Source of the DNA: a virus | IMG/VR virus record: IMGVR_UViG_3300022602_002453 | Coordinates: 1 to 21,100 of that record | DNA: 21,100 bases | Reading direction: 5' to 3' (one strand) | In this document: positions 6,301 through 21,100 of the stretch, piece after piece | Numbering within the stretch: the stretch's first letter is position 1 | Layout: each line of letters opens with the position of its first letter | Notes under the pieces: generated by a model | The model's database searches: none | The model's input: only the letters and a program-made list of their open reading frames with translations | What the model was told of the DNA's origin: nothing | Program-made: the position numbers and the translations under genes

Positions 6301-9300
6301 CTGGATACGGTGGTACTGTTATATCTAGTACCAGTAGTAATGCTGTCAAGGCAGCCAACTTAATTCAATTGAATAAGTCATTTATTCAAAGTGAAATATC
6401 AGGTTGGATCAGTAACAACTATAACACACAAACTTATACTGGTTATAGTGCGGCTAAGAGTCAGAGAGATACCGGATACTTGGTTGACGCAATAACATAC
6501 GATTTGTTATACGGTGGCGGTACTGCTAATAGTGCCACATGGGACATGGCGTTATCATACTACTATGGTAATGGCACAACTGCCGCATCGTTTACCGGTG
6601 CTATTAATGGAACTACATTAACTGTTACTGGTACAATCACTGGTACTATACAAACTGGCCAGATAATTTATGGTGCCGGCATTACACCTAATACTTTGAT
6701 TGTGTCAGGTAGTGGAACAAGTTGGACCGTTAACTATAGTCAAACAGCAACAGGCACACTAGCGGCAACAACCACATGGGTATCTGGTGGAACATCTGGT
6801 ACAAACTCTGTCACACTTGCTAGCGGTAGTGGAGCAGTAGTAGGACAATTTATTACAGGTACTGGTATACCTTCTGGAACTACCATAACGGCTGTTAATA
6901 CAAACACTATTACTATCAGTGCCAATTTCACAACCAATGCGGCTGGTTCATATAATTTCTACACAGGCATTAGCATAACTAGCCAAGCACTTACAAATTA
7001 TCTAGGCAGTAATGTAATTGTTTGTGCTACATCATTTGTACGTTTGAATACTATACTACAAGAAATTATTAGTAACGCTACAGTAACACCTAGCCCTGCT
7101 AATCAGCAGTCACAAATTACCAATGCTTATAGTGCCACTTCAACTGAAAGAACTATCATTAGTAGATTAACTAGTTTGTTAGTTGACTATGTAGTTGAGG
7201 GATTATTTGACAATGATGTGCTAGGTACTGTAACATCAAGTAGCAACACATTGTTAAATGTAAGCTATAATCCAAGCCTAGTAGCAGGCGCTTCAATCTC
7301 AGGTGCTGGTATTCCTAACGGAACTACTGTTACTACAGTTACTCCAAATACCGGAGATGGCACAAATGGTATCGGTGGTTACGGTACTGCTACTGTTGTA
7401 ATTTCTAATAATGCCACTGTTAGCGGAACTAACGTAACATTAACACTTAGTGGTACTGGTACTAGTATTCCAACTAGAACCGAACTAACTATTAGCAGTT
7501 ATAGTAACTACAGTGATTGGACTACTATCAACAATAACTTAGGTAATTTACAAACTAACGTTCTAACTTATCTAAATGGCGGTGCTGGCCTAGGTATTAA
7601 TATCGAAATGGGCGGTAACAAGTCCATGTTGGCCAATGACTTTACACAAGTTAACGATTTGGGCTATGGTATTTTATGTACCAATGCTGGTTTAACAGAA
7701 CAAGTTTCAACATTTACTTACTACTGTCATACTGGTTACTGGGCGTTAAATGGTGCGCAGATTCGTTCTGTAGCAGGTTCGAACTCAAATGGTGACTATG
7801 GTCTACGTGCTACAGGTTATGACGTAACTGAATTACCGGACAGCGTTAACTTATACCAAAACATGACCCAGACAGCACACATATATGCTCAAGGATTCTA
7901 TTTAAATAGTCAAGTTGTAACTAGTACATCTAGTCCTCTTAAGATTTACATTTACAATTATGAATATACTCCAACTGATGTAAGTGAAATTGAAATCGAT
8001 CATACTGCCGCTGGTGGTGGTACTGTTCGTTATCTAATCAGTACCGTTGCTCATACTACTGTAACAGTTAACGGTAAGAACGTGCTTGAACTTGATTTAA
8101 GTACAAGTGGTACAAACGGTACTAGTACTACCGGTCTTCAATATACTTTATATCATGGACAAATTGTTAGCATTCGTATGTTACAGAACTTTAAGTTCTA
8201 CAATATCGATAACGTAAAACCAGTTCGTCCAAGTACAGCGTTACAATTCCTTACTAACTTAGGCGACATTTATCGTATTATTTCTTATAACTTAATCGAA
8301 GCCACTGGTGAAGTATTTGCGTTAGGTACAGGTGTAGCTATTCTTAGCGTTGACTCGACTTTCAATTATTATAAATTAGGATCAGACGGACAAAATATTG
8401 TAGCGGCTGACCCTATTGCCCCTCCAGTAACAGCGTTTGTAACTAGCGGTAGTATTTTAAGTACAACAATTACCATCGGAAATGTTGTTGGAACAATACT
8501 TACAACTCCAGTAGCTTATGTAATTGGCGGTATTGGCTGGTTAGGTCAAACTGTAGTATCTGTTACTCCAACTACTGCGTCTTTCACTGCTAACTTTAAT
8601 AACGCAGGAGCAATGACTGTTACATCTAGTATAACAGGTACACTAGCCGTTGGTATGATGTTAACTGGCGGAAGTCTTGGAAGCTATGTATATGTAACTT
8701 CTTTAGTTAGTGGATCGGGAAATGGAAGCGTATGGACTGTAACTAACACTACAACATTGTCAGGAGTAAGCGTTACAGGCGCAATGACTACTCTTGTAAT
8801 GAGTGCTGTTCCTAGTTTACCACCGCAAGGCCCTGTATACTTTACACCTCGTACACAAGGTTCACGAACAGGCGATGATCGTATTGCTGTTACTAGCGTA
8901 GGTAGCGCCAGTGAAATTAATCAGTTAAACAAGGGAATTTATATTTTCTCTTGGTATGGACGTACACATTTAATTAATAACTATTCAGCAGGAACTTTAC
9001 AAACAACAGGAAGTTATGCATCTAGTATAACAATTAATGGTACAACATACACAAGTAGTGGAACTACATTAGTTGTTACTGGAGTTTCTGGCACAATTAG
9101 TCAAGGACAAATTGTTACCGGTACTGGATTTAATGGAACACAATATGTACAAAGTGCCGTATCTAACATTAGCGGAAATACTGTAAACTATGTTATAACA
9201 TTAACTGCCGCTCCAACAAGCCCAAGTAGTTTGTCAACAGGTAATACTATATACTTTGGTCAAATAACCAATAGTTATATTAGTATCAATCCAAACTCGG

Positions 9301-12300
9301 TATACAACAATAGTGCGATTGGTACACCAGTTACTGCTATGACTTATTTGAGTCAAGCGTATGTACCTGGAAGTGTTACACAGAAACTTATAACATTCGC
9401 AATACCATATAATGGATCAGTGAATAACAATTATTATGCTGTTCTACCTCCAGTAGACAGTATGATTACTGTGGCTAACCAATCTAACACTAACTATAAC
9501 GGTACATATCAAGTTACCGGTGTAACTACTACTACACAAATTACTGTACCTTATCAGCCATTACTTGCCGCTGGTATGGTTGTTAGTACAACAACTACCG
9601 GAGCAGTTGTACCTCCTTACACAATTATCCAAACAATTGATGCGGCTAATTCAGGTGGTAACACTATATTCACAGTTAGCCCAGCTTGTTGGTTACCAGC
9701 TGGATCTGTTATAACTGCTACACAATACAATACTGTGGTAGGCGTAACACCAGCAACAGGTGGTAGTGGATATACATTAGGAGATACTATTACTGTTAGT
9801 TTCTCTGGCGGATTAAGCGTAGGTAGCGGACGTAACGCCGCTGGCTCAGCTACTGCTAACGCAGACGGAACTATTACAATTATTGTAGTGGATCAAGGCT
9901 TTGGCTATACCAACGTTATTCCAACAATTACTATTACTGGTGGCACAGGTACTCCTCCTTCAGTAACAGCAATTCTATCATCTAACCCAACTTACAACAC
10001 TACATCATTAAGTGGTAATACTGTAACTCAGATGACATTGTTGTACCCAACTGATCCTGGTACTAGCGGTATTAGCACAAGTGTACAAGCAAGTGGCAAT
10101 CAAGTATTTGTTAGCACTATTTCTAATTTAGTTGTAGGCGACCCAATTATATTCAGTGGAACAACTTTCAGTAATATTGTAGCAGGAACAACATATTATG
10201 TGTTGACTACCAATGCTAACAGCGGTAATCCTTATATTACAATTACTGTTAATCCTCCGCCAGGAAATGCGTTGTGGACTGGTGCTAGCCAGACAACATT
10301 TACTGTACTAGCTTCAGGCACTGCTACAGGATCAATGACATTCTATAGTCCAGCATGGGGGTTAGGCTCAACTGTTAACGTTTCTAACGCTTCGACTACT
10401 ACTTCTGGTAGTATCAATTCTAGTGTAACAACTATTAACGTTGCTAGTACAAGTGGATTCCCAACAACTGGTACAATTTTAATCGATTCAGAAGTAATCA
10501 CATATGGCGGTGTAACTGGTACAAGTTTCACAGGTTGTACACGTGCAGCTCAAAGTACTACAGCCGCTTCTCATAACTCTGGAGTTACTGTATATCTAGT
10601 TCCAACTATTACTCCAGTTACATCTAACGGTATTACTACTTACAGCATAACTTATACATTAAGTTCTGCTACAGGTATTGTACAAGGAAACTACTATAGA
10701 ATTAACAACAATGCTGTTAGTTTATATAATGGTTATTGGCCAACAACTACGTCGACTCAAACTACAAACAGTTTAACATTGACATATCAATTTAATCCTG
10801 GCTTGTATAGTGCTACTACAACTTATGTCATGACTAAGGAAGCTACTAGTGCTACAAGTAATATTTTAGGTATTACTAAACCATTTAATACTATCAGCTC
10901 AACGACACTAAGAGCTGGTTATGCTGGTGATACAAGTGGACAAATTACTGTTCGTATTAGTACTTGTCGTGCTACAGGTCATGACTTCTTAGACATTGGT
11001 ACTGGTGGATTTGATACTACTAACTATCCAAACCAAATTTATGGTAACCCAGCAATACCAGCAGATTCAAGTAAACAAGTTGTTGAAGAAACTGTAGGTC
11101 GTGTGTTCCATGTATCAACAGACGAAAACGGTATTTTCCGTGTAGGTCGCTTCTTCCAAGTTGACCAAGGTACAGGTACTGTTACTTTTGCGGCAAGTAT
11201 TGCGTTGAGTAACTTGGACGGTTTAGGATTCAAACGTGGTGTTGTTGTAAGTGAATTCTCGACAGACGGCACAATGACTGAAAATGCTACAGACATTGTT
11301 CCAGTACAATCAGCTGTTCGTAGTTTCGTTGACTTACGTTTAGGTTTAGACTACGGTGGAAACCCGATTGGTACTACACAATTAATTGGTCCAGGCTACA
11401 TGGCACTAAGTGGTGTGCTAGCTATGAAAGGCAATTTAAACATTGGTAATAATTATATCAGTAATTTAAATATGCCTACTACTAGTACAAGTCCAAGTGA
11501 CGGTGCTAACAGAAATTATGTAGACACAAATGTAACAAATATCAATAGTTTATTCAAACTAAAAGATGTTAACACACAAGCTACTGCTACATACGTAAGC
11601 GGAAGTAGTGCTACAATTATTGTAAGCAACTTGATTGGTTCATTAGTAGCAGGACAGACTCTTAGCTACACAGGCGGAAGTGACTTCACAGGCCTTACTG
11701 TAGTAAGTTGGTCGCCTATCGGATCTAACTGGTCTGTCGTACTAAGCGGTGCTCCTAGCTCGTTTGCTGGATTAACTGGAACCACAGTAATTACATTCTC
11801 AAGTCTTGCCAACGGCAACTACTTGATTTATGATTCAACTGCCGGTGCTTGGAAAAACATTGGACTACCAACAGGCGATATCAATGTTACCTATAATAGT
11901 ACTTCAAATACTAGCGGAACATTAACCACAGCTATACAGGCTAACAAGATTACCAACGCAATGGTTAATAGTAGTGCGGCAATTGCGCAGACTAAATTGT
12001 CATTGTATCCAACACAGGCAATAGCAAGTTCTGGAACAGCATTTACTAGCCCAGTTGGACAGTCAGGTACTAACTTAGGTCTTGCTAGTTTTGATAGCAA
12101 ATACTTTACAGCATCAAGTGGTTGGGTAAGTTTAGCGGCTAGCAGTTCAACATCTTCCGGTATTGGTTACGATAAGATCCGTTATGTATCTAACGGTGCT
12201 ATTTTAGGTAACTTAACAGGTAATGCTGCAGCTATCCAAGAAATTAGTCCTGGAACAGTTGTTAGCTCAGGTGATGGTATTAAAAATGCCAACTTTAGTT

Positions 12301-13862
12301 ACGGTGCTCCAATCAATAGTGGATTAATGACTGTAACATACGATGGGTCAAACACCAGTAATAACTCTTATACAATTACTCCGGTTAGTACAGTAAGTGC
12401 GGCAGGCGCTGTTCTTAAAGCAGACTCGAACGGTAACGTGGATGTAGGCGGATTAAAAGTCGCAGGATATCCAACACCAAGTACTGCCACAATACTAAGT
12501 GTTAATACAAGTACATTAACCTTGTCGTTAACAACACCAGGTAATCAAACATTCATAACTGCTGTTGGTAATAGCACAAGTAACACTACAATTACTACTA
12601 CTGGCACATTAGACACTAGCAATGGTACATTGAAAGCTACAGCTATTACAACAGGCGCTGGCGCTACTGCTGGTAGTATTGTTGGTAACTGGGCTGTTCA
12701 AAGTAGCAGTACATGGGATGTTACTTTAGGTACACTAAAATCAATTACACTAACAAGTGGCGCATCAAGCACTGGTGGTTCTTTAACTGGACAATGGGCG
12801 TTAACATCTGGTAGCCAAATTGATGCTAGTTTAGGTACATTGAAGTCTACTACATTAACAGCAGGTTCTAGTTCGATTAGCGGGTCATTAACTGGTGCGT
12901 GGGCTGTTACTGGTAGTTTATCTATGTCGGGCTCTAGTGGATTTAGTATGGGATCCGGTGTGTTAGATGCTAGCGGAGGTACTTTAAGAACTATAACATT
13001 AAGCACTGGAAGTAGTGGTGCTAGCGGAACAGTTACTGGTACATGGACAGTTAACTCTGGTAGCACATTTGTAGCAACAAGTATACAGAATCAAGCTAAC
13101 AGCGCAACTACTACAGCTACAAGTACTAACACCCCTAGTCAAATTGTATTGCGAGATGGCAGTGGAAACTTTAGTGCTGGAACTATTACAGCTACATTAA
13201 GTGGTAATGCTAGCACAGCAAGTAACCCACAAGGTGGTGGAACATTTATTACTAGTACTAACATTGGTACTCAAACTGTAGCTTCTGTAACAAATCAAGC
13301 TAATAGTGCGACAATTTCAGCTACAACATCTAGTAGTTTAGCAAATACAATATTGCTAAGAGATAGTGCTGGCGGTGGTTATTTGAACACAGCTTATGTA
13401 ACTGGACTATATGCTAACAATGGCGGTAGCGCAGTTGTTAGTGGAACATGGACACTAAGCGGTGGCGCAAGTTTCCAAGCAACCTACGCTGACTTGGCAG
13501 AGTACTATGAAGGTGATCAAGAATACGAATCAGGTACTGTACTAGTGTTTGGTGGCGAAAAAGAAGTTACTACAACTACACAAATCAACGATACTCATAG
13601 TGCTGGTGTAGTAACAACTAATCCAGCGTACACTATGAACCAAGAACAGAAAGGTATCAAGGTTTGTATCGCACTTGCTGGTCGTGTTCCATGTAAAGTT
13701 GTAGGTCGTGTTAAGAAAGGTGATATGCTAACTACTAGTGCTACTCCTGGATATGCTGTTAAGGCATTAAATCCAACATTAGGCAGTATCATTGGTAAGG
13801 CATTAGAAGACAAAGACTACGGCGAAGCCGGAGTGATTGAAGTTGCCGTAGGGAGAACATAA
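387..13862 (+). CDS. Giant 4491-residue mosaic tail-fibre/baseplate-associated structural protein
   Basis: A single uninterrupted frame, very rich in Thr, Ser, Gly, Asn and Val. Order of parts (residues): N-terminal module shared with neighbouring proteins (1-40); LGxxLNxxGF motif (113-125); fibre hinge MTGKLNL to FYVD (225-260); beta-helix entry LYVSATKGDD to EPGPYRQTITY (269-328); alpha-helical repeats (359-1210 and 1987-2061) mixed with beta modules; beta-helix block IYYEDYPIKMAPNVTISGDD (about 1412-1431); GHGGFMMVLDP; MGGNKSMLANDF (from about 2407); conserved RATGHDFLDIGTGGF to SNLDGLGFKRGVV (about 3520-3650); second hinge (3670-3713); 35-residue repeats (4080-4233); NQANSAT repeats; conserved C-terminal domain (4366-4491). 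Several blocks match large structural proteins of marine T4-like phages. GGAG at 375-378 precedes the ATG. It overlaps the next gene by one base (TAATG). A host-contacting fibre or baseplate role is inferred; no enzymatic active site was recognised. Confidence 0.9.
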   Translation: MAQQIIDIGVQGNDGTGDSIRTSFNKVNQNFTEIYAVFGGGGTIPFTKLSDAPSSYSANQVIMAATTGGVLTARDVVGVDGITIDATSDPTKLKIKNTTLGLITEHTPTLGAALNAGGFVIGNLADPTPANLYNYNTTYSTSTTTLDKLAVNKGYVDSNYVSGTATKDSNGNVIDFNLSVPVKARTEPVLPPTTDADYDPTLTSNYTATEVLPRNKVVYRGGDSMTGKLNLSDHPGSMAGLGTPNGSDDLQAATKFYVDNNTYYSGVNLYVSATKGDDLQTKTPVGRQGRAWQYAYKTLGAAALAADNLISLSSTEPGPYRQTITYTVGPTQYQSTVQSVTLTGGNMYSNIGNYGYENAKTLLEANRAFIQNETIAYLNKKYVNAFQYDKTYWSNIINNILTAVSYDLALSSADGTSLTTYNVTTEASKLYNAYNNNIIVNQLVQIIDAITYAQNQILSYSFSTPNLENYVGQLVDALTYDMAFSTSSVISNYQSIQAALLFGDGASTGISNTELYSLLDTTAYTVTGASANGSTVTLYFATQLTTPYVIGSGIIVTGMTPTGYNGTYTVTGCTTSSVSFSSSFQIQFVSGGTVAKNNIINTILNTTGVVGNVTATNSLIANAALINNIVASGTVPTPNFPQLTTINISSTGTIGTVSGSGPYTATITNMTTTVGLYVGASINAVSGSGSIGSGTVTITNINSSTSINVSATTAMTAGTITGITTGNTAVVSASNLILNNLSFIQAELIAYITAEFPSVQYSQSTCRRDIEYVIWSLVYDLQYGGNSQTVYAGLRYFINTATLLGTLQAGSTNIYPTIYNHLTALVTAVVANVPPSVLYQQTVPQYINQTYLNGGSVLTSVVANINTFVSIISSVSQPSITATPPDVTQVSTLLQTARANVRSAKVSQLEPLAVTFINTSFPVINNTTINSTITNLFDVILDLLESGISTRTTPTFNNPAGLLSDFVTAKSLILDNTSFIIAEALAYMNNQFPGTTGLNALSTRDLTYLIEASIYDMIYQSTSATTAAALQYFANGVNQIPGLNTAVEACYAAVNHIQNIISTVAQNEPLNPTLLVQNVVAQTVYSGTSVGTGPGNTLAGLFGNIKTIMASGSSSAGTPPNLTSTGSGALGVNSTLLNVKTLITNNASVITTSTINYLSATYTGGFNYNESICFRDIGLMVDALAIDLVTGGNYQSVNAGKSYYRNASAQGIAIGTQLTETLDGITFAFGDPANGITGLIDQVLANNTTFNRYQTQYAQVTSANNTSGQYGVPSANSLSTLWGTKTQVSYGLVGIILNVIRSGIGAAPTATFGTGIWSIQFNNGNNGFVDQGGKITPGVQSSIHIIPGKILVGNASGAIGQIVSYTSGYDNSIPNDTITLRMTQPGFFSVGETIDFGETVNNLNITIFLESGIYYEDYPIKMAPNVTISGDDFRRTIVRPLNRISQSPWRSTFFYRDSVIDAIQTGIITFATDYASGVQSSATISGINGNITVTLPDNAVQASQSWLGLVFMDATAETGSAGKAVVNTVSGNVLNCTVVYPFAAITNYAIGSWHLYSTLNYGRHYLTNPLLIEGAVQAVFTGYISGTTLHISNLSSGSIIVGQYLTNVNTTDTQIISQTKIISGSGNTWTVNFGQTVGSSGIPVSMQIVNSAKNNKDLDVFLVNDATRIKLLTAQGHGGFMMVLDPTGQIKTKSPYAQESASFSGSLGTSKRFAGGQFIDGFAGRLFGVVTAISNLGKTITVTGQAGSGLDLRPPQVPCAFYVAGFRYQINDVVSWTQNMDGSGTVVLTMDNSTPFYLTNAYNTSTSIYANLLKSSVTAAAYDMVVGTNYRTIYNGLTYLQGANSYTSLRALLMTSGLAQSETYLGLLGLSTNDNTSINNSLTNIENIINNGLSAAPTLTFPGFTITTSSCSGSTATINYTSNAAGTAPFSNGNTIIVAGNSVTGYNGTWTVISSTATATTFSVSPSSNLLAGYGGTVISSTSSNAVKAANLIQLNKSFIQSEISGWISNNYNTQTYTGYSAAKSQRDTGYLVDAITYDLLYGGGTANSATWDMALSYYYGNGTTAASFTGAINGTTLTVTGTITGTIQTGQIIYGAGITPNTLIVSGSGTSWTVNYSQTATGTLAATTTWVSGGTSGTNSVTLASGSGAVVGQFITGTGIPSGTTITAVNTNTITISANFTTNAAGSYNFYTGISITSQALTNYLGSNVIVCATSFVRLNTILQEIISNATVTPSPANQQSQITNAYSATSTERTIISRLTSLLVDYVVEGLFDNDVLGTVTSSSNTLLNVSYNPSLVAGASISGAGIPNGTTVTTVTPNTGDGTNGIGGYGTATVVISNNATVSGTNVTLTLSGTGTSIPTRTELTISSYSNYSDWTTINNNLGNLQTNVLTYLNGGAGLGINIEMGGNKSMLANDFTQVNDLGYGILCTNAGLTEQVSTFTYYCHTGYWALNGAQIRSVAGSNSNGDYGLRATGYDVTELPDSVNLYQNMTQTAHIYAQGFYLNSQVVTSTSSPLKIYIYNYEYTPTDVSEIEIDHTAAGGGTVRYLISTVAHTTVTVNGKNVLELDLSTSGTNGTSTTGLQYTLYHGQIVSIRMLQNFKFYNIDNVKPVRPSTALQFLTNLGDIYRIISYNLIEATGEVFALGTGVAILSVDSTFNYYKLGSDGQNIVAADPIAPPVTAFVTSGSILSTTITIGNVVGTILTTPVAYVIGGIGWLGQTVVSVTPTTASFTANFNNAGAMTVTSSITGTLAVGMMLTGGSLGSYVYVTSLVSGSGNGSVWTVTNTTTLSGVSVTGAMTTLVMSAVPSLPPQGPVYFTPRTQGSRTGDDRIAVTSVGSASEINQLNKGIYIFSWYGRTHLINNYSAGTLQTTGSYASSITINGTTYTSSGTTLVVTGVSGTISQGQIVTGTGFNGTQYVQSAVSNISGNTVNYVITLTAAPTSPSSLSTGNTIYFGQITNSYISINPNSVYNNSAIGTPVTAMTYLSQAYVPGSVTQKLITFAIPYNGSVNNNYYAVLPPVDSMITVANQSNTNYNGTYQVTGVTTTTQITVPYQPLLAAGMVVSTTTTGAVVPPYTIIQTIDAANSGGNTIFTVSPACWLPAGSVITATQYNTVVGVTPATGGSGYTLGDTITVSFSGGLSVGSGRNAAGSATANADGTITIIVVDQGFGYTNVIPTITITGGTGTPPSVTAILSSNPTYNTTSLSGNTVTQMTLLYPTDPGTSGISTSVQASGNQVFVSTISNLVVGDPIIFSGTTFSNIVAGTTYYVLTTNANSGNPYITITVNPPPGNALWTGASQTTFTVLASGTATGSMTFYSPAWGLGSTVNVSNASTTTSGSINSSVTTINVASTSGFPTTGTILIDSEVITYGGVTGTSFTGCTRAAQSTTAASHNSGVTVYLVPTITPVTSNGITTYSITYTLSSATGIVQGNYYRINNNAVSLYNGYWPTTTSTQTTNSLTLTYQFNPGLYSATTTYVMTKEATSATSNILGITKPFNTISSTTLRAGYAGDTSGQITVRISTCRATGHDFLDIGTGGFDTTNYPNQIYGNPAIPADSSKQVVEETVGRVFHVSTDENGIFRVGRFFQVDQGTGTVTFAASIALSNLDGLGFKRGVVVSEFSTDGTMTENATDIVPVQSAVRSFVDLRLGLDYGGNPIGTTQLIGPGYMALSGVLAMKGNLNIGNNYISNLNMPTTSTSPSDGANRNYVDTNVTNINSLFKLKDVNTQATATYVSGSSATIIVSNLIGSLVAGQTLSYTGGSDFTGLTVVSWSPIGSNWSVVLSGAPSSFAGLTGTTVITFSSLANGNYLIYDSTAGAWKNIGLPTGDINVTYNSTSNTSGTLTTAIQANKITNAMVNSSAAIAQTKLSLYPTQAIASSGTAFTSPVGQSGTNLGLASFDSKYFTASSGWVSLAASSSTSSGIGYDKIRYVSNGAILGNLTGNAAAIQEISPGTVVSSGDGIKNANFSYGAPINSGLMTVTYDGSNTSNNSYTITPVSTVSAAGAVLKADSNGNVDVGGLKVAGYPTPSTATILSVNTSTLTLSLTTPGNQTFITAVGNSTSNTTITTTGTLDTSNGTLKATAITTGAGATAGSIVGNWAVQSSSTWDVTLGTLKSITLTSGASSTGGSLTGQWALTSGSQIDASLGTLKSTTLTAGSSSISGSLTGAWAVTGSLSMSGSSGFSMGSGVLDASGGTLRTITLSTGSSGASGTVTGTWTVNSGSTFVATSIQNQANSATTTATSTNTPSQIVLRDGSGNFSAGTITATLSGNASTASNPQGGGTFITSTNIGTQTVASVTNQANSATISATTSSSLANTILLRDSAGGGYLNTAYVTGLYANNGGSAVVSGTWTLSGGASFQATYADLAEYYEGDQEYESGTVLVFGGEKEVTTTTQINDTHSAGVVTTNPAYTMNQEQKGIKVCIALAGRVPCKVVGRVKKGDMLTTSATPGYAVKALNPTLGSIIGKALEDKDYGEAGVIEVAVGRT
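1059..1163 (+). other. Tail-fibre hinge motif, first full copy in the giant protein
   Basis: Residues about 225-259 run from MTGKLNLSDHPGSM to ATKFYVD. They fit the common fibre pattern MxGxLxM...L..P....DA..K.YVD. A second full copy lies at residues about 3670-3713 (ALSGVLAMKGNLNIG to ANRNYVD), and a weaker one near residues 113-157 ends in NKGYVD. The two full copies bracket the beta-helix and helical-repeat section, so they may be joints at either end of it. Confidence 0.65.
1191..1370 (+). other. N-terminal beta-helix (pectin-lyase-like) entry segment
   Basis: Residues about 269-328 contain LYVSATKGDD, then GRAWQYAYKTLGAAALAAD, then EPGPYRQTITY. This resembles the start of right-handed beta-helix phage and surface proteins (YVS..GDD....P..A..T...A). 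The expected continuation, IYYEDYPIKMAPNVTISGDD, occurs only about 1080 residues later. The fold is inferred from motif resemblance. Confidence 0.5.
1461..4016 (+). repeat. Degenerate alpha-helical repeat array (copies 1-4; a fifth lies at 6345-6570)
   Basis: The protein-level repeat follows the pattern A..LI..N..FI..E..AY, then RDIG..VDA..YDL..GGN, then A..YY. Copies start at residues about 359 (AKTLLEANRAFIQNETIAYL), 733 (ASNLILNNLSFIQAELIAYI), 969 (AKSLILDNTSFIIAEALAYM), 1139 (VKTLITNNASVITTSTINYL) and 1987 (VKAANLIQLNKSFIQSEISG). The second half is clearest as RRDIEYVIWSLVYDLQYGGN and RDIGLMVDALAIDLVTGGN. Half-copies ending in YDM occur near residues 470-500 and 1815-1840. Linkers of the type SG....PTF.NP recur before or after the copies. 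Spacing is irregular (374, 236 and 170 residues), so the repeats are ancient and separated by other modules. Confidence 0.75.
4602..4709 (+). other. Beta-helix core block of the giant protein
   Basis: Residues about 1406-1441 contain IFLESGIYYEDYPIKM, then APNVTISGDD, then FRRTIVRP. This reads like the coil-turn rungs of pectin-lyase-like folds (LxxGxYxExxPIxLPxNVTIxGdd). It probably completes the framework begun at residues 269-328, after the helical repeats. The fold is inferred from pattern only. Confidence 0.5.
5121..6956 (+). repeat. Inserted beta modules of the type SGTTLxVT...GQxI...SGSGxxWTVNxxQT
   Basis: Two clear copies are at residues about 1579-1641 (FTGYISGTTLHIS; ISGSGNTWTVNFGQT) and 2068-2130 (FTGAINGTTLTVT; VSGSGTSWTVNYSQT). 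A related copy follows at about 2135-2190 (VVGQFITGTGIPSGTTITAV). More diverged relatives lie near residues 2280-2360, 2740-2800 and 2880-2945. Copy 1 interrupts the segment running from GRHYLTNPLLIEGAVQ to DLDVFLVNDATRI, and copy 2 interrupts the fifth helical repeat. They look like small beta domains placed in surface loops of an older framework. Confidence 0.6.
12624..13082 (+). repeat. Four tandem 35-residue repeats near the giant protein's C-terminus
   Basis: The protein-level unit is GTLKxxTLTxGxSSxxGSLT followed by GxWAxxSGSxxDASL. Copies begin at 12624, 12729, 12834 and 12978 (residues 4080, 4115, 4150 and 4198). The first two steps are exactly 105 bases. The third is 144 bases because copy 3 carries about 13 extra residues (SLSMSGSSGFSMG). 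The DNA has diverged between copies, so this is not a fresh slippage product. The unit fits a triple-beta or beta-roll fibre shaft; that fold is inferred. Confidence 0.8.
13089..13380 (+). repeat. Two-copy NQANSAT...LRD fibre repeat
   Basis: NQANSATTTATS to QIVLRDGSGNFSAGTITA starts at residue 4235, and NQANSATISATTSS to TILLRDSAGGGYLNTAYV starts at residue 4303, 68 residues apart. Short repeats of this kind are common in the distal shafts of phage tail fibres, just ahead of the C-terminal domain. Confidence 0.7.
13482..13859 (+). other. Conserved C-terminal domain of the giant protein
   Basis: Residues 4366-4491 contain TYADLAEYYEGDQEYESGTV, then GVVTTNPAYTMN, then ALAGRVPCKVVGRVKKGDML, then TTSATPGYAVKA, then IGKALEDKDYGEAGVIEVAV. 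This block recurs at the ends of many phage fibre and bacterial surface proteins as I know them. It looks compact, beta-rich and well conserved compared with the repetitive shaft. Possible roles are a trimerisation cap, a chaperone-like tip or a receptor contact; the sequence does not decide between them. A Ser/Asp-type self-cleavage site was not recognised. Confidence 0.6.
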
Positions 13863-14374
13863 TGGCTGTACAATTAATCAACACAGGGTCAAACCCGAAC
13901 GACAACAGTGGCGATACGCTACAGTTAGCGTTTAACAAATGTAATCATAACTTTGGAGAACTATATGCTAGCTTAGGTAGTGGAGTAGTTCCAAGCCCAA
14001 GTGTAAGCGACGCTAACAAATTATTAGTAGTCAATTCTAGTGGAACTGGATATCAGTTATCTGTTGGGTCATTCGGTAATGCTAATATAACAATTAGCAA
14101 TACTTCCCCAAATAGCCCAGCTACTGGCAACTTATGGTTCGACGATTTAGGCGGAAGATTGTACATCTATTATTCTAATGCGTGGGTCGAAGCTAGTCCA
14201 CCGTTGCTTAATTATAACTCAGTTCCCCCTACCCATGCTGTTGGTGCGGCGGGCGACTCGGCTGGAGAATGGAGCGCAGACTATAATTACTATTACTATT
14301 GTACGGCAACTTACACAGGTAACAGTGATCCAATTTGGCGCAGAATACCTTTTGACTCAAACAATAGTTGGTAA
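13862..14374 (+). CDS. Small fibre-like structural protein with the shared N-terminal module
   Basis: The product has 170 residues. Residues 3-38 (QLINTGSNPNDNSGDTLQ, then LAFNKCNHNFGELYASLG) are a diverged copy of the N-terminal module of the giant protein. The middle has a motif typical of phage fibre and tail appendage proteins, PATGNLWFDDLGGRLYIYY followed by SNAWVEASPP. The end has VPPTHAVGAAGDSAGEWS and YYYYCTATYTGNSDPIWRRI, a pattern also repeated in phage virion proteins (GAAGD.AG...D..Y.Y.CT..YTG...IW.R). There is no signal peptide or membrane segment. The start is supported by GGGAG at 13851-13855 and the one-base overlap with the preceding stop, which implies translational coupling. 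It is probably a minor fibre or baseplate-associated protein; the exact position in the virion is unknown. Confidence 0.85.
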   Translation: MAVQLINTGSNPNDNSGDTLQLAFNKCNHNFGELYASLGSGVVPSPSVSDANKLLVVNSSGTGYQLSVGSFGNANITISNTSPNSPATGNLWFDDLGGRLYIYYSNAWVEASPPLLNYNSVPPTHAVGAAGDSAGEWSADYNYYYYCTATYTGNSDPIWRRIPFDSNNSW

Positions 14375-14936: not shown

Positions 14937-15512
14937 ATGACAGCACCACAAATACAACAAATCAATTTAGGTAACTATGCCAACGATGGCACTGGTGATG
15001 ATTTACGCACCGCGTTTCAAAAAGTAAACAACAATTTTAATGTGTTGTACGGCGAAGCCGCTGTTAGTAGTGCTGTAAACCTAGGAACAGGTACCGGCAT
15101 TTTTGCTGACAAAAACAATTCAACTCTTAATTTAGAATTTAAAACATTAAAGGCCAATGCCGATGGAAGTATCGTAATTACTAACGATGCTAGTAGTATT
15201 ACATTACAAAGCATTACTCGATTAGCCAACGACACTAATCCAGCATTAGGTGGAAATTTAAACTTAGAAGGATTTAATATTGTAGGCGGTGGAGATGTAA
15301 GAACTAGTATATGGGGCATTGATATTCGTATTTTAAATGCTACTGTAGAATTTCTAGTACAAACCGGAAACAGTAATATCGATGCTGGAACTATCACTAA
15401 CCCGACTGGAAGTGAATCTGGTTCTGCAGCCTACACATTAGACATGGGTCCATTTGTAAATCCATTAGGCGGATCTGTAGCATCAAACGTATTAGATTTT
15501 GGAAGTTTTTAA
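14937..15512 (+). CDS. Structural protein with the shared N-terminal module
   Basis: The product has 191 residues. Residues 6-41 (IQQINLGNYANDGTGDDLR, then TAFQKVNNNFNVLYGEA) are the clearest copy of the module that begins the giant protein. Around residues 96-115 there is NPALGGNLNLEGFNIVGGGD, which also has a counterpart in the giant protein (TPTLGAALNAGGFVIGNLAD), so the two share two modules in the same order. The C-terminus is short (SGSAAYTLDMGPF, NVLDFGSF) and has no recognisable receptor-binding fold. The ribosome binding site AAGAGAG precedes ATG 14937. It may be a short paralogue of the base of the giant fibre, for example an adaptor or a spacer occupying equivalent sites; that role is inferred. 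Confidence 0.85.
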   Translation: MTAPQIQQINLGNYANDGTGDDLRTAFQKVNNNFNVLYGEAAVSSAVNLGTGTGIFADKNNSTLNLEFKTLKANADGSIVITNDASSITLQSITRLANDTNPALGGNLNLEGFNIVGGGDVRTSIWGIDIRILNATVEFLVQTGNSNIDAGTITNPTGSESGSAAYTLDMGPFVNPLGGSVASNVLDFGSF

Positions 15513-15515
15513 AAT

Positions 15516-18080
15516 ATGCCATTAAATGTATGGACACAACCAAGTGGATATTCGTTTGGAACAGTCTACGCCGAGCAACCAGTTAATTTAGCGTTGCCAG
15601 TGGCAAATGATGCCGGAGTTACTTATCGAGTAATTTCAGGATCGTTGCCAGACAATGTCTTTCTTGTGGGCAATCATTTAGTAGGCAGTCCATTTGTTCT
15701 TAAAAATAAATTAAACTATAGTTTTTGTATACGTGCTAGTTTAAATGGTCAAATTAGTGATAGAACATTTACATTAAATTTACTAGAAGTCAACATACCA
15801 ACATTTATCACACCTGAAGGACAAATACAACAACTATATGTGTTAGATCAAACTTATGTAAGCTATCAGTTAGATGCGTATGATCTAAATGAATCCGGTG
15901 TATTAAATTATTTTATTGCTAGTAACGATGGAAATTTACCTCCAGGACTAACACTTAGTTCCACAGGTTTAATTTCTGGTTACATAGAACCGAACTATAG
16001 TATTGTACCAACAACAGGTAGTGGAAATTATGACGCCAGCATATTTGACCAAATTGGTTTTGACTTTGGACTAGTTAGTACAAACGGATTCGATGACTAC
16101 GCATATGATGATGTATTCTTTGATTACAATATTCCAACACAAGGACTAATAACACTTAGCGCAAATTATCAATTCCGTGTTACACTAACCGATGGCATTA
16201 ATAGTACCCAACGAATTTTTAGAATATTTGTTGTGGGCAATGATGAATTCCGCGCAGACTCGACTGCCCTTAACGGTTTCATGGATGGATTTACCGCTGA
16301 CGCAACTTATATTCGTAAACCTTACTGGGTCACTAACGCAAACTTAGGTGTATTCAGAGCCAACAACTATGTTACTATTCCTGTAGCATTGTATGACACA
16401 AACTTTGTTACATTTAGAGAAGAACTTACTAATCAAGAAGTTTATACAAACGCACATCAAATAACACCATTCGATAATATCTTAGGAAGTCATACAGTTA
16501 CCATTACTAACACAGTAGGAACTCCTCAAGTAGGACAATGGTTTGGTTTAGAATATTACGTTACAAACGCGACTGGCACCGCTTATAAAATTAACAATGT
16601 GGCAGTATTAGGAACAAACAGTTACAGACTTACTATAGATACTGCTTTAGAAAATGTTATCGATAATGGTACTCCTTTTTACATTGGATCATTAAGCACA
16701 TTACCAACAGGATTATCTTTTGATGTCGAAAGCGGGGACTTGTTTGGTATTGTTCCTTATCAACCTGCTATTACTAAAACATTTACATTTACATTAACTG
16801 CTTCAAGATACGGCACTAAAGAAGATTACGTAAGCAACAGTAGAACTTTCACTGTTACAATTATAGGTGAAATTAATAGTATTATTACTTGGCAAACTCC
16901 TAACAACTTAGGTAGCATTCCAGCTGACTATATATGTACACTATCAGTTAATGCCACAACTAATATTAGTGGAGCAAGTATAATTTACAGTCTAACCGGA
17001 GGTTCTTTACCGCCCGGACTAACATTAAATCCGGACGGTGAAATTATTGGAACTGTGAATCAGTTTTACAATAATTTGTCCGGCAAGTTAGGGCTGATTA
17101 CATTCAACGGTGGACATACTACCTTTGATCAAGGTACAACAACTTTTGATAGAACATATAACTTTACTGTAACTGCTAGTGATCAGTTTGGATACAATAC
17201 TGTACCTAGACAATTTACAATTAATATTACAACACCCAATACATACCTATACAGTAACATAACAGCTAGACCATTTTTAAACAGTACACAACGAACCAGT
17301 TGGCAAAACTTTATCAATGACACTAGTATTTTTACGCCGGATAGTATCTACAGAACAAACGATAGCAATTTTGGTGTACAAACTACTATGAGTATGTTAG
17401 TCTACGCAGGTATACAAACTGAGCAGGCGGCGGCTTATGTTGGCGCAATGGGTATAGGTGTTAAAAAGAAACGTTTTATTTTTGGCGATATTAAAACTGC
17501 GGTAGCTATAGATCCTACTACAAAATTGCCAGTATACGAAGTTGTATACATTCAAATGATAGATCCACTGGAACCTAACGGAAAGCATTTGCCTTTAATT
17601 GTAAAAACACCAACACTAGAGCCAGAGACTATTACAGTTGACGACAGCAATTCAATCTGGTCAGATTTGACTGACGATTTGAATGCCGATGCACCGACTG
17701 CGGTTCGACCAGATTATAATATTACTATCGACAGCACTGGTTATCTAGTAAGCAATCCTAATACAGACGAATACTTTCCTAGCAGTATTACCAATTGGAG
17801 AACTAGATTAGGTGGAGTTGGCGCAACAGAACGCGACTATTTGCCGCTTTGGATGCGTAGTATTCCATCAGGACAAAAAGCAGAATTAGATTATACATTA
17901 GCAGTTCCACTATGTTTTTGTAAACCAGGAACTTCTAGCACTATAGCATTAAACATTAAATTTAGCGGATTTGATTTTAAAACAATAGATTACACAATAG
18001 ACAGATTTACAATAGATTCTGTCACAGGATATGTAGGTAATAAATACCTTGTATTTAAAAATGATAGGATAACCGTATGA
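15516..18080 (+). CDS. Large virion protein with cadherin/Ig-like (He_PIG-type) domains
   Basis: The product has 854 residues. At least three segments fit the He_PIG-like pattern LPxGLxxxxxxGxIxG: residues about 140-157 (LPPGLTLSSTGLISGY), 393-412 (LPTGLSFDVESGDLFGIV) and 495-515 (SLPPGLTLNPDGEIIGTV). A weaker fourth is near 42-59 (SGSLPDNVFLVGNHLVGS). Each is followed by strands such as YNFTVTASDQFG and FTFTLTASRYG, typical of Ig-like sandwiches. The last third is different: YAGIQTEQAAAYVGAMGIG, then KKKRFIFGDIKTAVAI, then LPLWMRSIPSG, a block I associate with T4-like marine phage structural proteins. There is no signal peptide. GGAAG at 15501-15505 precedes the ATG, and it overlaps the next gene by ATGA. 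It is probably a baseplate or fibre-connector protein whose Ig-like domains bind carbohydrate or neighbouring proteins; this is inferred. Confidence 0.85.
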   Translation: MPLNVWTQPSGYSFGTVYAEQPVNLALPVANDAGVTYRVISGSLPDNVFLVGNHLVGSPFVLKNKLNYSFCIRASLNGQISDRTFTLNLLEVNIPTFITPEGQIQQLYVLDQTYVSYQLDAYDLNESGVLNYFIASNDGNLPPGLTLSSTGLISGYIEPNYSIVPTTGSGNYDASIFDQIGFDFGLVSTNGFDDYAYDDVFFDYNIPTQGLITLSANYQFRVTLTDGINSTQRIFRIFVVGNDEFRADSTALNGFMDGFTADATYIRKPYWVTNANLGVFRANNYVTIPVALYDTNFVTFREELTNQEVYTNAHQITPFDNILGSHTVTITNTVGTPQVGQWFGLEYYVTNATGTAYKINNVAVLGTNSYRLTIDTALENVIDNGTPFYIGSLSTLPTGLSFDVESGDLFGIVPYQPAITKTFTFTLTASRYGTKEDYVSNSRTFTVTIIGEINSIITWQTPNNLGSIPADYICTLSVNATTNISGASIIYSLTGGSLPPGLTLNPDGEIIGTVNQFYNNLSGKLGLITFNGGHTTFDQGTTTFDRTYNFTVTASDQFGYNTVPRQFTINITTPNTYLYSNITARPFLNSTQRTSWQNFINDTSIFTPDSIYRTNDSNFGVQTTMSMLVYAGIQTEQAAAYVGAMGIGVKKKRFIFGDIKTAVAIDPTTKLPVYEVVYIQMIDPLEPNGKHLPLIVKTPTLEPETITVDDSNSIWSDLTDDLNADAPTAVRPDYNITIDSTGYLVSNPNTDEYFPSSITNWRTRLGGVGATERDYLPLWMRSIPSGQKAELDYTLAVPLCFCKPGTSSTIALNIKFSGFDFKTIDYTIDRFTIDSVTGYVGNKYLVFKNDRITV

Positions 18081-18661
18081 CCAGTCAAATAAATTATTCA
18101 GCAGTGATAGCAACTTACCCAGTGGCTGGGCAAGATAACGACAGCCAGGGATTCAGAGATAACTTTACTGCGATCCAAGCAGGGTTGACTGTAGCCGCTA
18201 ATGAAATTACTAATCTTGAAAATAGCTCAGTATTAACCAGTGTACTTGGATCAAGCCCACCTGTTCCTGTGGTAAATGATTTGTTAGGTAGTACAATTCA
18301 CAATGGATTATACAGCCAATTCAACGGCGTTTTTTACAATGCTGGCGTTGTATCTGGTCTAGTTAACATTAATATAAACAACGGCCCTATTCAAAAATTT
18401 ACCTTAAGTGCTAACTCAGTTCTTAATTTCACCAATTGGCCGCCAACAGGTACTTATGGAGTTATACGTATTATGTTAGTAACTGATCACTCAGGAACAT
18501 ATACAGCTAATTTTAGTACAGCCAATTCAGGAACTTTAAAAAGAGCAACTGGATTTACTTTGCCTGTATCAGTCAACAGCACAGGTACATACGAAATTAT
18601 CGAAGCATGGAGTGTAGATTACGGAACCAACGTGTTTATTAAGAACATTGGGGAATATTAA
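18077..18661 (+). CDS. Structural protein with GQDNDSQGFRDNF N-terminal motif
   Basis: The product has 194 residues. It begins with a variant of the docking module: YPVAGQDNDSQGFRDNF followed by TAIQAGL, comparable with NDGTGDxLRxAFxKVNxNF in the other proteins. A short helical stretch (TVAANEITNLENS) follows. The C-terminal half is a predicted beta domain: FTLSANSVLNFTNWPPTGTY, then VIRIMLVTDHSGTYTANFST, then TYEIIEAWSVDYGTNVFI. This arrangement is familiar from small virion proteins of marine T4-like phages. The start lies within the stop of the preceding gene (ATGA), and the last base of its own stop is the first base of the next ATG, so the three genes are probably translationally coupled. 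It is likely the last gene of the fibre/baseplate group. Confidence 0.85.
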   Translation: MTSQINYSAVIATYPVAGQDNDSQGFRDNFTAIQAGLTVAANEITNLENSSVLTSVLGSSPPVPVVNDLLGSTIHNGLYSQFNGVFYNAGVVSGLVNININNGPIQKFTLSANSVLNFTNWPPTGTYGVIRIMLVTDHSGTYTANFSTANSGTLKRATGFTLPVSVNSTGTYEIIEAWSVDYGTNVFIKNIGEY

Positions 18662-18891
18662 TGCACCCGCTATTAGGTAATTTAGACAGCCTCAAAGACA
18701 ACGAGCTTGAACAAAAGATTTTTGATTTAAGCAAAAAATACTTCATGACTAATAATCCAGAAGTACAAAGCCAAATGATCATGGTTTTGAATGGATTAAA
18801 AGAAGAAATGAGCAAACGAAGACAAGCACAGTTAGCCAGTTTAATGGCTAATCGCGATAAAACACTTGACAAACTGATCAAAGTAAGTTAA
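18661..18891 (+). CDS. Small helical protein of unknown function
   Basis: The product has 76 residues and is highly charged, with predicted helices throughout: LDSLKDNELEQKIFDLSKKY, then NPEVQSQMIMVLNGLKEEM, then SKRRQAQLASLMANRDKTL. There are no cysteines, membrane segments or signal peptide. GGGGAA at 18650-18655 serves as ribosome binding site, and the ATG overlaps the preceding stop by one base. Its position at the border between structural genes and replication/accessory genes, and its size, are compatible with a small regulator, a chaperone or a virion assembly factor. I do not recognise a characterised family; the MTNNPEVQ and KEEMSKRR segments resemble conserved hypothetical proteins of marine T4-like phages. 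Confidence 0.82.
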   Translation: MHPLLGNLDSLKDNELEQKIFDLSKKYFMTNNPEVQSQMIMVLNGLKEEMSKRRQAQLASLMANRDKTLDKLIKVS

Positions 18892-18893
18892 AC

Positions 18894-18907
18894 TATGCGC
18901 TATGCGC
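18894..18907 (+). repeat. Tandem 7-base duplication spanning two candidate start codons
   Basis: TATGCGC is repeated twice without a gap. The first copy supplies an ATG at 18895 that opens a 6-codon frame (MRYALR, stop at 18913-18915). The second supplies ATG 18902, the chosen start of the next gene, in a different frame. No strong ribosome binding site precedes either. Confidence 0.8.
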
Positions 18908-19411
18908 TTAGATAAATTCGGTAATCCTATTTTTAATTCACAAGATATATTCAAATTCCTTTACCAAGGAAAACTTACCAACCTCAAAGATCTTACAGTA
19001 GATTATACTGAAGATATTGAACAGTTGGAGCAAACAGCCGGATTCACATTTCAAAGATTTAACGAACAGTTAGAATCTATCAATATAGAAGATTTTGATA
19101 GTGCTTTACAAAGTGACTGGTTTATGCCCCCAGAATATAGAGACTTTGATGTGGAAGAATGGTGTTTATCCAAGTGTACAACTCCTGAACAAGTATCTCG
19201 AGTTTTAGATGAAATGAAGGCCTATACAGATCGAGGTATGATTCCATTACTACAATGGACCAAACATTTTGTAGATACATGTAACGAAAATGGTATTGTT
19301 TGGGGAGTTGGGCGTGGATCTAGCGTAGCCAGTTTTATACTGTTTTTGCTGGGCGTACATCAAATAGATTCAGTCAAATATAATTTAGACTGGCAGGAAT
19401 TCCTGAGATAA
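18902..19411 (+). CDS. DNA polymerase III alpha-like fragment protein (GRGS motif, no catalytic residues)
   Basis: The product has 169 residues. The C-terminal part resembles the region of bacterial replicative polymerase alpha subunit (DnaE, family C) just ahead of its catalytic centre: YTDRGMIPLLQWTKHFVDTC, then NGIVWGVGRGSSVASFILFL, then LGVHQIDSVKYNLDWQEFLR. The GRGS motif is at residues 137-140. In DnaE the corresponding LFERFLNPER is followed by the PDFDxDF aspartates; here the protein stops at EFLR, so those residues are absent. The PHP domain is also absent; residues 1-85 are acidic and unlike PHP. It cannot be a polymerase alone. It may be a remnant kept for nucleic-acid or clamp/primer contacts, or a decoy for the host polymerase. 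The match is motif-based; the role is unknown. Confidence 0.8.
   Translation: MRLDKFGNPIFNSQDIFKFLYQGKLTNLKDLTVDYTEDIEQLEQTAGFTFQRFNEQLESINIEDFDSALQSDWFMPPEYRDFDVEEWCLSKCTTPEQVSRVLDEMKAYTDRGMIPLLQWTKHFVDTCNENGIVWGVGRGSSVASFILFLLGVHQIDSVKYNLDWQEFLR
19394..19405. repeat. Perfect 12-base palindrome at the end of the DnaE-like gene
   Basis: CAGGAATTCCTG is a loop-free perfect palindrome in the last codons of the DnaE-like gene. It is followed 7 bases later by the 8-base palindrome TACTAGTA (19413-19420). There is no T run, so it is not an intrinsic terminator. A protein-binding site is possible, but the codons alone could explain it. Confidence 0.4.
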
Positions 19412-19438: not shown

Positions 19439-19765
19439 ATGGCAATGAAAGAGACAGCTCGTCAAGTATACCGTACCGCAAGAGGTAAGGAAGTTGATAT
19501 GGGCAGATTAATACAACAAAATGAATTGGCTATTGCTGTGGGCAATGCCGGTGTTAACGCTCGTGGTGATAAACTAGGGCCAGGCGGACAGATTATCAAA
19601 CGCCGAGAAGAATTACAAACACCTAATTCAATTCCTGAGCAAGTAAGTGTTCGACCACAACCTGATCCAGTACCTGCTCCAAAAACTACTGTTCAACTAT
19701 CGGGTCCAGTAACATTACCTACTAAAAAGAATATCGTAGATCAAGATCCGGAAGGAAACGAGTAA
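19439..19765 (+). CDS. Conserved hypothetical protein of T4-like phages
   Basis: The product has 108 residues. The N-terminal half is basic and well patterned: RQVYRTARGKEVDMGRLIQQ, then NELAIAVGNAGVNARGDKLG, then PGGQIIKRREEL. I know this TARGK.VDM...NE...AVGN..VNARGD.LGPGG signature from conserved, uncharacterised proteins of T4-like aquatic phages. The second half is Pro-rich and probably disordered (VSVRPQPDPVPAPKTTVQLS). It has the strongest ribosome binding site in this part of the window: AAGGAG at 19427-19432, 6 bases before the ATG, consistent with high expression. Its stop overlaps the next ATG by one base (TAATG), linking it to the GroES-like gene. The function is unknown; its composition suggests a virion- or nucleic-acid-associated protein. 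Confidence 0.85.
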   Translation: MAMKETARQVYRTARGKEVDMGRLIQQNELAIAVGNAGVNARGDKLGPGGQIIKRREELQTPNSIPEQVSVRPQPDPVPAPKTTVQLSGPVTLPTKKNIVDQDPEGNE

Positions 19766-20199
19766 TGGATTTACAAAGTATCGGCCGCGAAGGAATTAAA
19801 CCCAAGGTATACGGGAAAATTATTCCTCTAAAGGACAATGTTCTTATTACTGATATGGAATTCGGTGAAAGAAAACTTGGTATGTTTGTACTACCAAGTG
19901 ATGATGGCAAGTCAGAAGGTATCCGACATCGTTGGGGCCGCGTGTGGGCTATCGGTCCACAACAAAAAGATGTCAAAGTCGGAGATTGGATTCTGCTTGA
20001 ACATGGTCGCTGGACACGAGGTGTCACTGTTGTAGAAGAAGATGGCACTGAAGTTATTATTCGACGAGCAGACCTTAACGCAATTCTAATGGTCAGTGAC
20101 GAAAAGCCTGACGAAAATTATATGAATACTCAAGGTGTTCATTCAAAAATACAACATCAAGAATGGGATCCGGCTCAATTCTCAGGTCCACAGTTTTAA
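19765..20199 (+). CDS. Phage GroES-like co-chaperonin (gp31-like role)
   Basis: The product has 144 residues, against about 97 for bacterial GroES and 111 for T4 gp31. The core fits a GroES beta barrel: YGKIIPLKDNVLITDM (residues 16-31), a presumed mobile loop EFGERKLGMFVLPSDDGKSE (32-51), then HRWGRVWAIGPQQKDVKVGD and WILLEHGRWTRG, ending in VIIRRADLNAILMV. The loop carries the hydrophobic GMFVLP that would dock on GroEL. Residues about 115-144 form an extra polar tail (DENYMNTQGVHSKIQHQEWD) not typical of GroES. It would cap host GroEL and adapt it to fold phage proteins, as T4 gp31 does for the capsid protein. AAGGA at 19752-19756 precedes the ATG. The family call is good; the phage client protein is unknown. 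Confidence 0.85.
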   Translation: MDLQSIGREGIKPKVYGKIIPLKDNVLITDMEFGERKLGMFVLPSDDGKSEGIRHRWGRVWAIGPQQKDVKVGDWILLEHGRWTRGVTVVEEDGTEVIIRRADLNAILMVSDEKPDENYMNTQGVHSKIQHQEWDPAQFSGPQF

Positions 20200-20274: not shown

Positions 20275-20469
20275 ATGGAAATTCAACCAAAAGATCCAAG
20301 TGTAGGACATTTTTATGTAAGTCTAGTAAAAAGTTTCTTGCGTATTGTAGGATATGTAGCATTAGGTATGGCTGGTTTTGATCCTAACTTGTTAACAGCA
20401 TGGCTTAAAGTAGCCGCAGGTATGTTAGCATTAGCCGAATGTTTAGGAATTTTAGAGGAACTAGTATGA
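20275..20469 (+). CDS. Small hydrophobic, possibly membrane protein
   Basis: The product has 64 residues. After a polar start (MEIQPKDPSVGHFY) come two hydrophobic stretches, SFLRIVGYVALGMAGF (about 20-35) and LLTAWLKVAAGMLALAECLG (about 39-58), ending in ILEELV. It could form one or two membrane segments or a helical hairpin. The ribosome binding site AAGGAG is 5 bases before the ATG, directly behind a strong sigma70 promoter, so it is the first gene of its transcript. Its stop overlaps the start of the clamp-loader gene as ATGA. I do not recognise a characterised family; the DPSVGHFYVSLVKSF segment looks like a conserved small protein of T4-like phages. Its function is unknown. Confidence 0.8.
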   Translation: MEIQPKDPSVGHFYVSLVKSFLRIVGYVALGMAGFDPNLLTAWLKVAAGMLALAECLGILEELV

Positions 20470-21100
20470 TAGAACTATGGGTAGATAAGTATCGTCCAAA
20501 GAGTATGGACGGTTATGTTTGGCGAGATAATGCTCAAAAACGTCAAGTAGAAAGTTGGATTAAAGACAAAAGTATTCCGCACTTGTTATTAAGTGGAACG
20601 CCGGGCATTGGTAAAACAACTATGGCTAAAATTCTAGTAAATGAAATTGGTATCGAAGATGCCGACGTACTAGATGTTAATGCGTCACGTGAAACAGGTA
20701 TTGATTTTATTCGTAACAAAATTGTTCCGTTTATCAGCAGTATTGCGTGGGGGCCATTTAAAGTAGTATTGTTAGACGAAGCAGATCGTCTAAGTCCACA
20801 AGCACAAGACTCGTTAAAAGGTATTATTGAAGAATATAGTGCCTATGCTAGATTCATCCTTACTTGTAATAATCCTAACATGGTTGTGCCAGCGTTACAT
20901 AGCCGTTGCCAACAATTCCATTTTACTAAATTGGATCAAACAGAGTTTACAGCTCGTGCGGCAACCGTTTTAGTATCAGAAAACATTGAATTTGATTTAG
21001 ATACGTTGGATGTATATGTTAGTACCACATATCCAGATTTGCGTAAATGTTTAAATCTACTACAACAAAACACTAGCGAAGGCAAATTATTCAGCCCACA
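20466..21100 (+). CDS. 44: Sliding-clamp loader ATPase subunit, gp44-like (partial, runs off window)
   Basis: The first 211 codons are open to the window edge; T4 gp44 has 319 residues, so about two thirds is present. It is an AAA+ ATPase that with gp62 loads the gp45 clamp onto primed DNA. The start ELWVDKYRPKSMDGYVW is typical of gp44/RFC small subunits. Walker A is GTPGIGKTT (residues 44-52), Walker B is VVLLDEAD (100-107), sensor 1 is TCNNPN (133-138), and the SRC arginine-finger motif is at 146-148. DLRKCLNLLQ (from about residue 190) fits the lid/sensor 2 region. AGAGGAA at 20454-20460 precedes ATG 20466, which overlaps the previous stop as ATGA. gp62 and the polymerase would be expected downstream, outside the window. 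Confidence 0.95.
   Translation, partial: MIELWVDKYRPKSMDGYVWRDNAQKRQVESWIKDKSIPHLLLSGTPGIGKTTMAKILVNEIGIEDADVLDVNASRETGIDFIRNKIVPFISSIAWGPFKVVLLDEADRLSPQAQDSLKGIIEEYSAYARFILTCNNPNMVVPALHSRCQQFHFTKLDQTEFTARAATVLVSENIEFDLDTLDVYVSTTYPDLRKCLNLLQQNTSEGKLFSP

What the first reader, a model, noticed from the sequence alone, without database searches (positions are those of the whole stretch)
18902..19411. Stand-alone DnaE-like fragment without catalytic residues
A 169-residue phage protein keeps the GRGS region and LxxxxFLR end of bacterial polymerase III alpha but stops just before the PDFDxDF aspartates and lacks a PHP domain. The frame is intact and its neighbours are tightly packed, so it does not look like decay. 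A T4-like phage with its own family B polymerase would not need it for synthesis. It might interfere with the host replisome, bind nucleotides or DNA, or act as an assembly factor. This is the strongest candidate for an uncharacterised function here.
Basis: partly seen in the sequence, partly recalled or inferred. Interest (0 to 1): 0.65.

Follow-up and report, generated by a model that had tools for sequence, protein, structure and literature searches.

The report
Half of a split phage DNA polymerase
The small gene encodes the nucleotide-binding half of a stripped-down bacterial-type DNA polymerase whose catalytic half is encoded by a separate, distant gene in related giant phages; this split enzyme was described from sequence in 2021, and I found no report that anyone has tested it.

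Summary
In detail: 18902-19411 is an intact 169-aa frame whose residues 73-169 match the first palm segment of PolIII alpha (DnaE), including GxGRGS, and it stops just before PDFDxDF. The inference "stand-alone, without catalytic residues, unknown function" does not hold: the missing half exists as a second gene. All 15 complete related phage genomes checked by profile carry one N-half (A, phrog_11127) and one ~190-210 aa protein (B, phrog_11778) that starts at the catalytic motif (MPDIDIDF) and holds all three catalytic aspartates plus a shortened finger core. GxGRGS is invariant in 126/126 A proteins, the aspartates in 135/135 B proteins. AlphaFold models of A and B align to adjacent stretches of one E. 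coli PolIII alpha chain (279-393 and 401-784). Both genes have dN/dS of about 0.08. B is not in this 21-kb fragment, but a 345-kb relative (half A 86% identical) has it about 170 kb away. Iyer et al. 2021 (PMC7824862) already described this split minimal PolIII alpha in group 2.2 jumbo phages with family B polymerase. So: a new member of a known, apparently untested kind. Added here: the pair also occurs in a 141-kb phage, and half A's first ~72 residues have no structural match.

The parts
18902..19411 (+). Half A: N-terminal half of a split minimal PolIII alpha (phrog_11127), 169 aa
18902..19117 (+). Half A residues 1-72: N-terminal region specific to this family; predicted with fair confidence, no structural match covered it
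   Evidence: only residues 73-169 were covered by matches
19118..19408 (+). Half A residues 73-169: first segment of the PolIII palm (E. coli DnaE 279-393; VIA Z 10.3, rmsd 2.2, 93 residues aligned against 2hnh)
19304..19321 (+). GxGRGS nucleotide-binding motif (residues 135-140); G135, G137, R138, G139, S140 invariant in 126/126 family members
18661..18891 (+). 76-aa protein of unknown function just upstream
   Evidence: no confident family match
19439..19765 (+). 108-aa protein (phrog_14844, unknown function), conserved downstream neighbour of half A
   Evidence: the same position is held by a ~110-150 aa gene
19765..20199 (+). GroES-like co-chaperonin (Cpn10), conserved neighbour
   Evidence: PF00166, 26.8 bits over cut-off 21.1
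20466..21100 (+). gp44-type clamp-loader ATPase, cut by the window end; conserved neighbour
   Evidence: its profile recovers the clamp-loader genes of relatives at 140-315 bits

Best explanation
The gene is half A of a two-subunit, minimal family C (PolIII alpha type) polymerase. Half A supplies the first palm helices and the GxGRGS loop, which binds the incoming nucleotide triphosphate. Half B, encoded elsewhere in the phage genome, supplies the catalytic aspartates (equivalents of E. coli D401, D403, D555) and a shortened finger core. The two most likely associate without covalent linkage into one palm; the chain is cut in the loop between the last palm helix of A and the catalytic strand of B. 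The assembled enzyme lacks PHP, thumb, HhH, OB and clamp-binding regions, so it most likely makes short stretches of DNA (repair, gap filling or one special step of replication) beside the replicative family B polymerase. Shown: homology, complementarity, co-occurrence, invariance of active-site residues, purifying selection. Inferred: physical association, catalytic activity, role in the infection. That this very phage carries half B is inferred from its relatives, because the record is only 21 kb.
For: Half B found by a finger-domain search in complete relatives and read as MPDIDIDF.... B matches PolIII models in colinear order: PDIDIDF, third Asp, RPG, KSHxxxY. All three catalytic Asp are invariant in 135/135 B, GxGRGS in 126/126 A; the Asp triad is absolutely conserved in the whole C family according to PMC3919608. 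Models: A residues 73-169 on E. coli DnaE 279-393 (VIA Z 10.3, rmsd 2.2, 93 aligned, 2hnh); B residues 2-189 on 401-784 (Z 8.9, rmsd 3.9, 180 aligned, 2hnh); family C polymerases alone stand at the top of both lists. Co-occurrence: 15/15 complete named phage genomes have one A and one B. All 60 best-listed A records in the phage collection also have B (59 by comparing, the last). Six of seven IMG/VR records over 200 kb have both. The 141-kb phage Slicko01 has both. dN/dS is 0.086 for A and 0.083 for B. The family B polymerase is present beside it. The same conclusion is published.
Against: No direct evidence of A-B contact: a complex could not be modelled here. The genes lie 11-224 kb apart, so they do not form an operon. 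One 261-kb record has B without A, though it may be incomplete. The thumb seems absent: H31 of B lies 28 residues after the first Asp, against 110 in E. coli, so synthesis on a primer-template is not certain. Foldseek E-values are modest (9e-4 for B, 2e-2 for A). B alone falls below the Pfam finger-domain cut-off. Correlated evolution of A and B is not distinguishable from that with a control gene.
Confidence: 0.82

Rival explanations
1. A and B form a complex, but one that no longer synthesises DNA on a template: a nucleotidyltransferase of another kind (end addition, gap filling for end joining, nucleotide sensing).
For: The thumb and all accessory domains are missing (motif spacing), and a family B polymerase is present for replication. 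The complete catalytic triad and nucleotide loop are invariant, so some phosphoryl transfer is expected.
Against: The finger core (RPxK, KKxHxxxY) is kept invariant or nearly so, which suggests template-directed dNTP selection rather than a general transferase.
Confidence: 0.3
2. Half A acts on the host replisome as a decoy of PolIII alpha, or on its own as a nucleotide or DNA binder.
For: It resembles the host palm segment (E. coli DnaE 279-393).
Against: The invariant residues are the nucleotide loop, which would lie inside the host polymerase and not on a contact surface (inference). The partner half is found with it in all complete genomes checked.
Confidence: 0.06
3. Truncation, frameshift or decaying remnant of a full dnaE.
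For: Only one part of DnaE is present at this locus.
Against: Same end point in all relatives, dN/dS about 0.09, conserved neighbours, and no residual coding after the stop.
Confidence: 0.01

Closest known systems
Split minimal DNA polymerase III alpha of group 2.2 jumbo phages (Iyer et al. 2021, PMC7824862)
   Same: Two separate proteins encoded by distant genes: an N-terminal NTP-binding half and a C-terminal Mg- and template-binding half, beside a family B polymerase and an RFC-type clamp loader.
   Different: No essential difference. This member comes from an uncultured lineage with many IMG/VR relatives; the same pair was also found here in a 141-kb phage (Slicko01), below jumbo size.
PHROG 11127 (half A) and PHROG 11778 (half B), both labelled DNA polymerase
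   Same: Full-length matches: A at 2e-38; B of relatives at 1e-58 to 5e-108.
   Different: The PHROG labels do not say that the two belong together.
Bacterial PolIII alpha (DnaE, PolC)
   Same: Palm fold, GxGRGS loop, PDxDxDF, third Asp, RPG and KSH finger motifs, in the same order.
   Different: Split in two; no PHP, HhH, OB or tau-binding parts, and the thumb region is missing by motif spacing; about 360 aa in all against 1160.
Split family B polymerase with intein of phage MIJ3 (PMC6892783)
   Same: A phage polymerase in pieces.
   Different: A different polymerase family; MIJ3 also carries A and B.

Membership tests
Split minimal PolIII alpha of jumbo phages | N-half protein with the PolIII GxGRGS palm segment that ends before PDxDxDF | tested here: met
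Split minimal PolIII alpha of jumbo phages | C-half protein with the catalytic aspartates encoded elsewhere in the same genome | tested here: inconclusive
   Met in complete relatives, including a 345-kb phage with an 86% identical half A; this window's own record is only 21.1 kb and contains no half B.
Split minimal PolIII alpha of jumbo phages | Accompanied by a family B polymerase and an RFC-type clamp loader | tested here: met
   Clamp loader at 20466 onward in the window; family B polymerase seen in the 345-kb relative and in the named phages searched, not in the 21-kb record itself.
Split minimal PolIII alpha of jumbo phages | The halves associate and polymerise DNA | not testable with these tools
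   Needs protein work; none found in the papers searched.
Family C DNA polymerase (PolIII alpha) as an enzyme | Three catalytic aspartates (E. coli D401, D403, D555) | tested here: met
   Met by the A+B pair of relatives (135/135); half A alone has none.
Family C DNA polymerase (PolIII alpha) as an enzyme | PHP domain, nearly universal in bacterial members (PMC3919608) | tested here: not met
   No PHP match in A or B.

The most novel reading that the evidence does not exclude
The pair is a two-gene, thumbless and PHP-less family C polymerase of about 360 residues, far smaller than cellular members, with a role other than bulk replication, and the unmatched N-terminal 72 residues of half A serve as a new docking or regulatory piece. 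It would give a working picture of a primitive PolIII.
Probability: 0.3. Interest if true: 0.7.

Novelty: new member of a known kind. Interest (0 to 1): 0.4.

Why it matters
If the two halves make an active enzyme, it is a natural minimal PolIII split exactly between its nucleotide-binding and metal-binding parts, kept for a long time beside an unrelated replicative polymerase. It would allow a direct test of which parts of PolIII are needed for DNA synthesis and of what a second polymerase does for large phages. The general arrangement is already published, so this window mainly adds a further lineage with many environmental relatives.

Tried and rejected
Decay, frameshift or missed continuation: rejected. 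A second full-length PolIII alpha in the same phages: none seen; the weak extra PF07733 hit in Vibrio phage 2.275.O is a 611-aa repetitive structural-type protein. Fused or adjacent A+B: no fetched locus has a fused ORF; the closest pair seen is about 11 kb apart (Slicko01). Two loci (L332, L358) gave A-profile hits near B, but these are a separate single-chain PHP-less DnaE-like protein, not found in the complete A/B phages tested. Intein or trans-splicing: A simply ends and B simply starts at the break (alignments); not pursued further. Correlated distances A-B (r 0.95) are no higher than B with the clamp loader (r 0.96), and one control sequence (Slicko01) was unsuitable, so this test is uninformative. 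Structure search gave no match covering half A residues 1-72; this does not show a new fold. Early family-search calls failed through a wrong frame for the clamp loader; protein 7 used the same wrong frame and is void.

Full report
What is there. The frame 18902-19411 (+) is intact, 169 aa. Its residues 93-168 match the Pfam PolIII alpha domain PF07733 at 42.6 bits, well over the cut-off; NCBIfam DnaE models reach E 9.6e-9. Over its whole length it belongs to PHROG 11127, a 171-residue phage family. It ends at WQEFLR, the equivalent of E. coli DnaE residue 393; PDFDVDF starts at 400. No PDxDxDF motif exists in any frame of the window and nothing continues after the stop.

It is a conserved gene, not decay. 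tblastn finds relatives in many jumbo phages, about 170-185 aa long and with the same end. Median dN/dS among close relatives is 0.086. The neighbourhood is conserved: half A, a small protein (phrog_14844 in the window), a GroES-like protein, then the gp44-type clamp loader (in the window).

The missing half. A search of complete relatives with the PolIII finger domain gave weak hits, each in a ~190-210 aa frame. Read out, these proteins begin MPDIDIDF or similar and continue with KHNTG (E. coli GKHAGG), FKIDFL (E. coli KFDFLGL, third Asp D555), RPGK (RPGP) and FKKSHS (FNKSHS). They are PHROG 11778, also labelled DNA polymerase. Profile and solved-structure searches place the pieces in the same order on several DnaE proteins.

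Complementarity. GxGRGS residues are invariant in 126/126 A proteins; the Asp triad of B is invariant in 135/135, as are H31, G34, R132, P133, K135, H167 and Y171. According to PMC3919608 the Asp triad is absolutely conserved in all family C polymerases. AlphaFold models (A: mean pLDDT 87.5; B: 88.4) match family C polymerases above everything else: half A residues 73-169 on E. coli 279-393, half B residues 2-189 on 401-784. The two stretches abut. From motif spacing (28 residues between the first Asp and the KH motif in B, 110 in E. coli) the thumb is missing; the fingers are shortened as well. No PHP domain was detected.

Co-occurrence. Fifteen complete named genomes searched by profile carry exactly one A and one B each. 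The 60 best A records of the phage collection all have B. Of seven IMG/VR records over 200 kb, six have both and one (261 kb, possibly incomplete) only B. The genes lie from about 11 kb (Slicko01) and 15 kb (RAS14, XacN1) to over 200 kb (Phosso) apart. The long relative of this window, a 345-kb record with an 86% identical half A, has A at 192.5 kb and B at 16.5 kb. Phage Slicko01, only 141 kb long, also has both, with a GroES-like gene next to A. All genomes searched for it have a family B polymerase.

Mechanism. The best reading is a non-covalent two-subunit polymerase palm: A brings the nucleotide-binding loop, B the metal-binding aspartates and the finger core. Shown here: homology, complementary coverage, invariance, selection, co-occurrence. 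Inferred: association, activity, and a supporting rather than bulk replicative role. The last rests on the family B polymerase and on the lack of thumb, clamp-binding and proofreading parts.

What is known. Iyer et al. [quoted passage not shown] I found no biochemical study in the papers searched; the library holds open-licence papers only. The finding is therefore a new member of a known kind. What this work adds is quantitative: invariance across 126 and 135 proteins, co-occurrence counts, presence in a sub-jumbo phage, a large number of IMG/VR relatives (their habitats were not checked), and the unmatched N-terminal part of A.

Limits. The window record is 21.1 kb, so half B of this very phage is not seen. 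A complex could not be modelled. Several records are fragments, so absences there mean little.

Noticed in passing
L332:14626-16302 (+) and L358:15167-16410 (+, cut): A separate single-chain DnaE-like protein (558 aa in L332) without PHP, with GRGS, PDIDLDF, a third Asp and finger motifs, in contigs that also carry half B; not found in the complete A/B phages tested.
   Followed up: partly
window 24-383 (+): A-type iron-sulphur cluster carrier (PF01521, 71.5 bits) next to phage tail genes.
   Followed up: no
window 387-13862, 13862-14374, 14937-15512 and perhaps 18077-18661 (+): Structural genes, one of them 4491 aa long, share an N-terminal motif like NDGTGDxxRxAFxKxNxNFxxLY; two of them match the T4 gp9/10 N-terminal domain weakly.
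   Followed up: no
L101, L099, L100, L379 (neighbours of half B): Half B often lies near a protein with an N-terminal zinc-finger-like motif and is followed by a convergent ~110-125 aa gene (with a WWWxxNR motif in the jumbo phages); a possible functional link.
   Followed up: no
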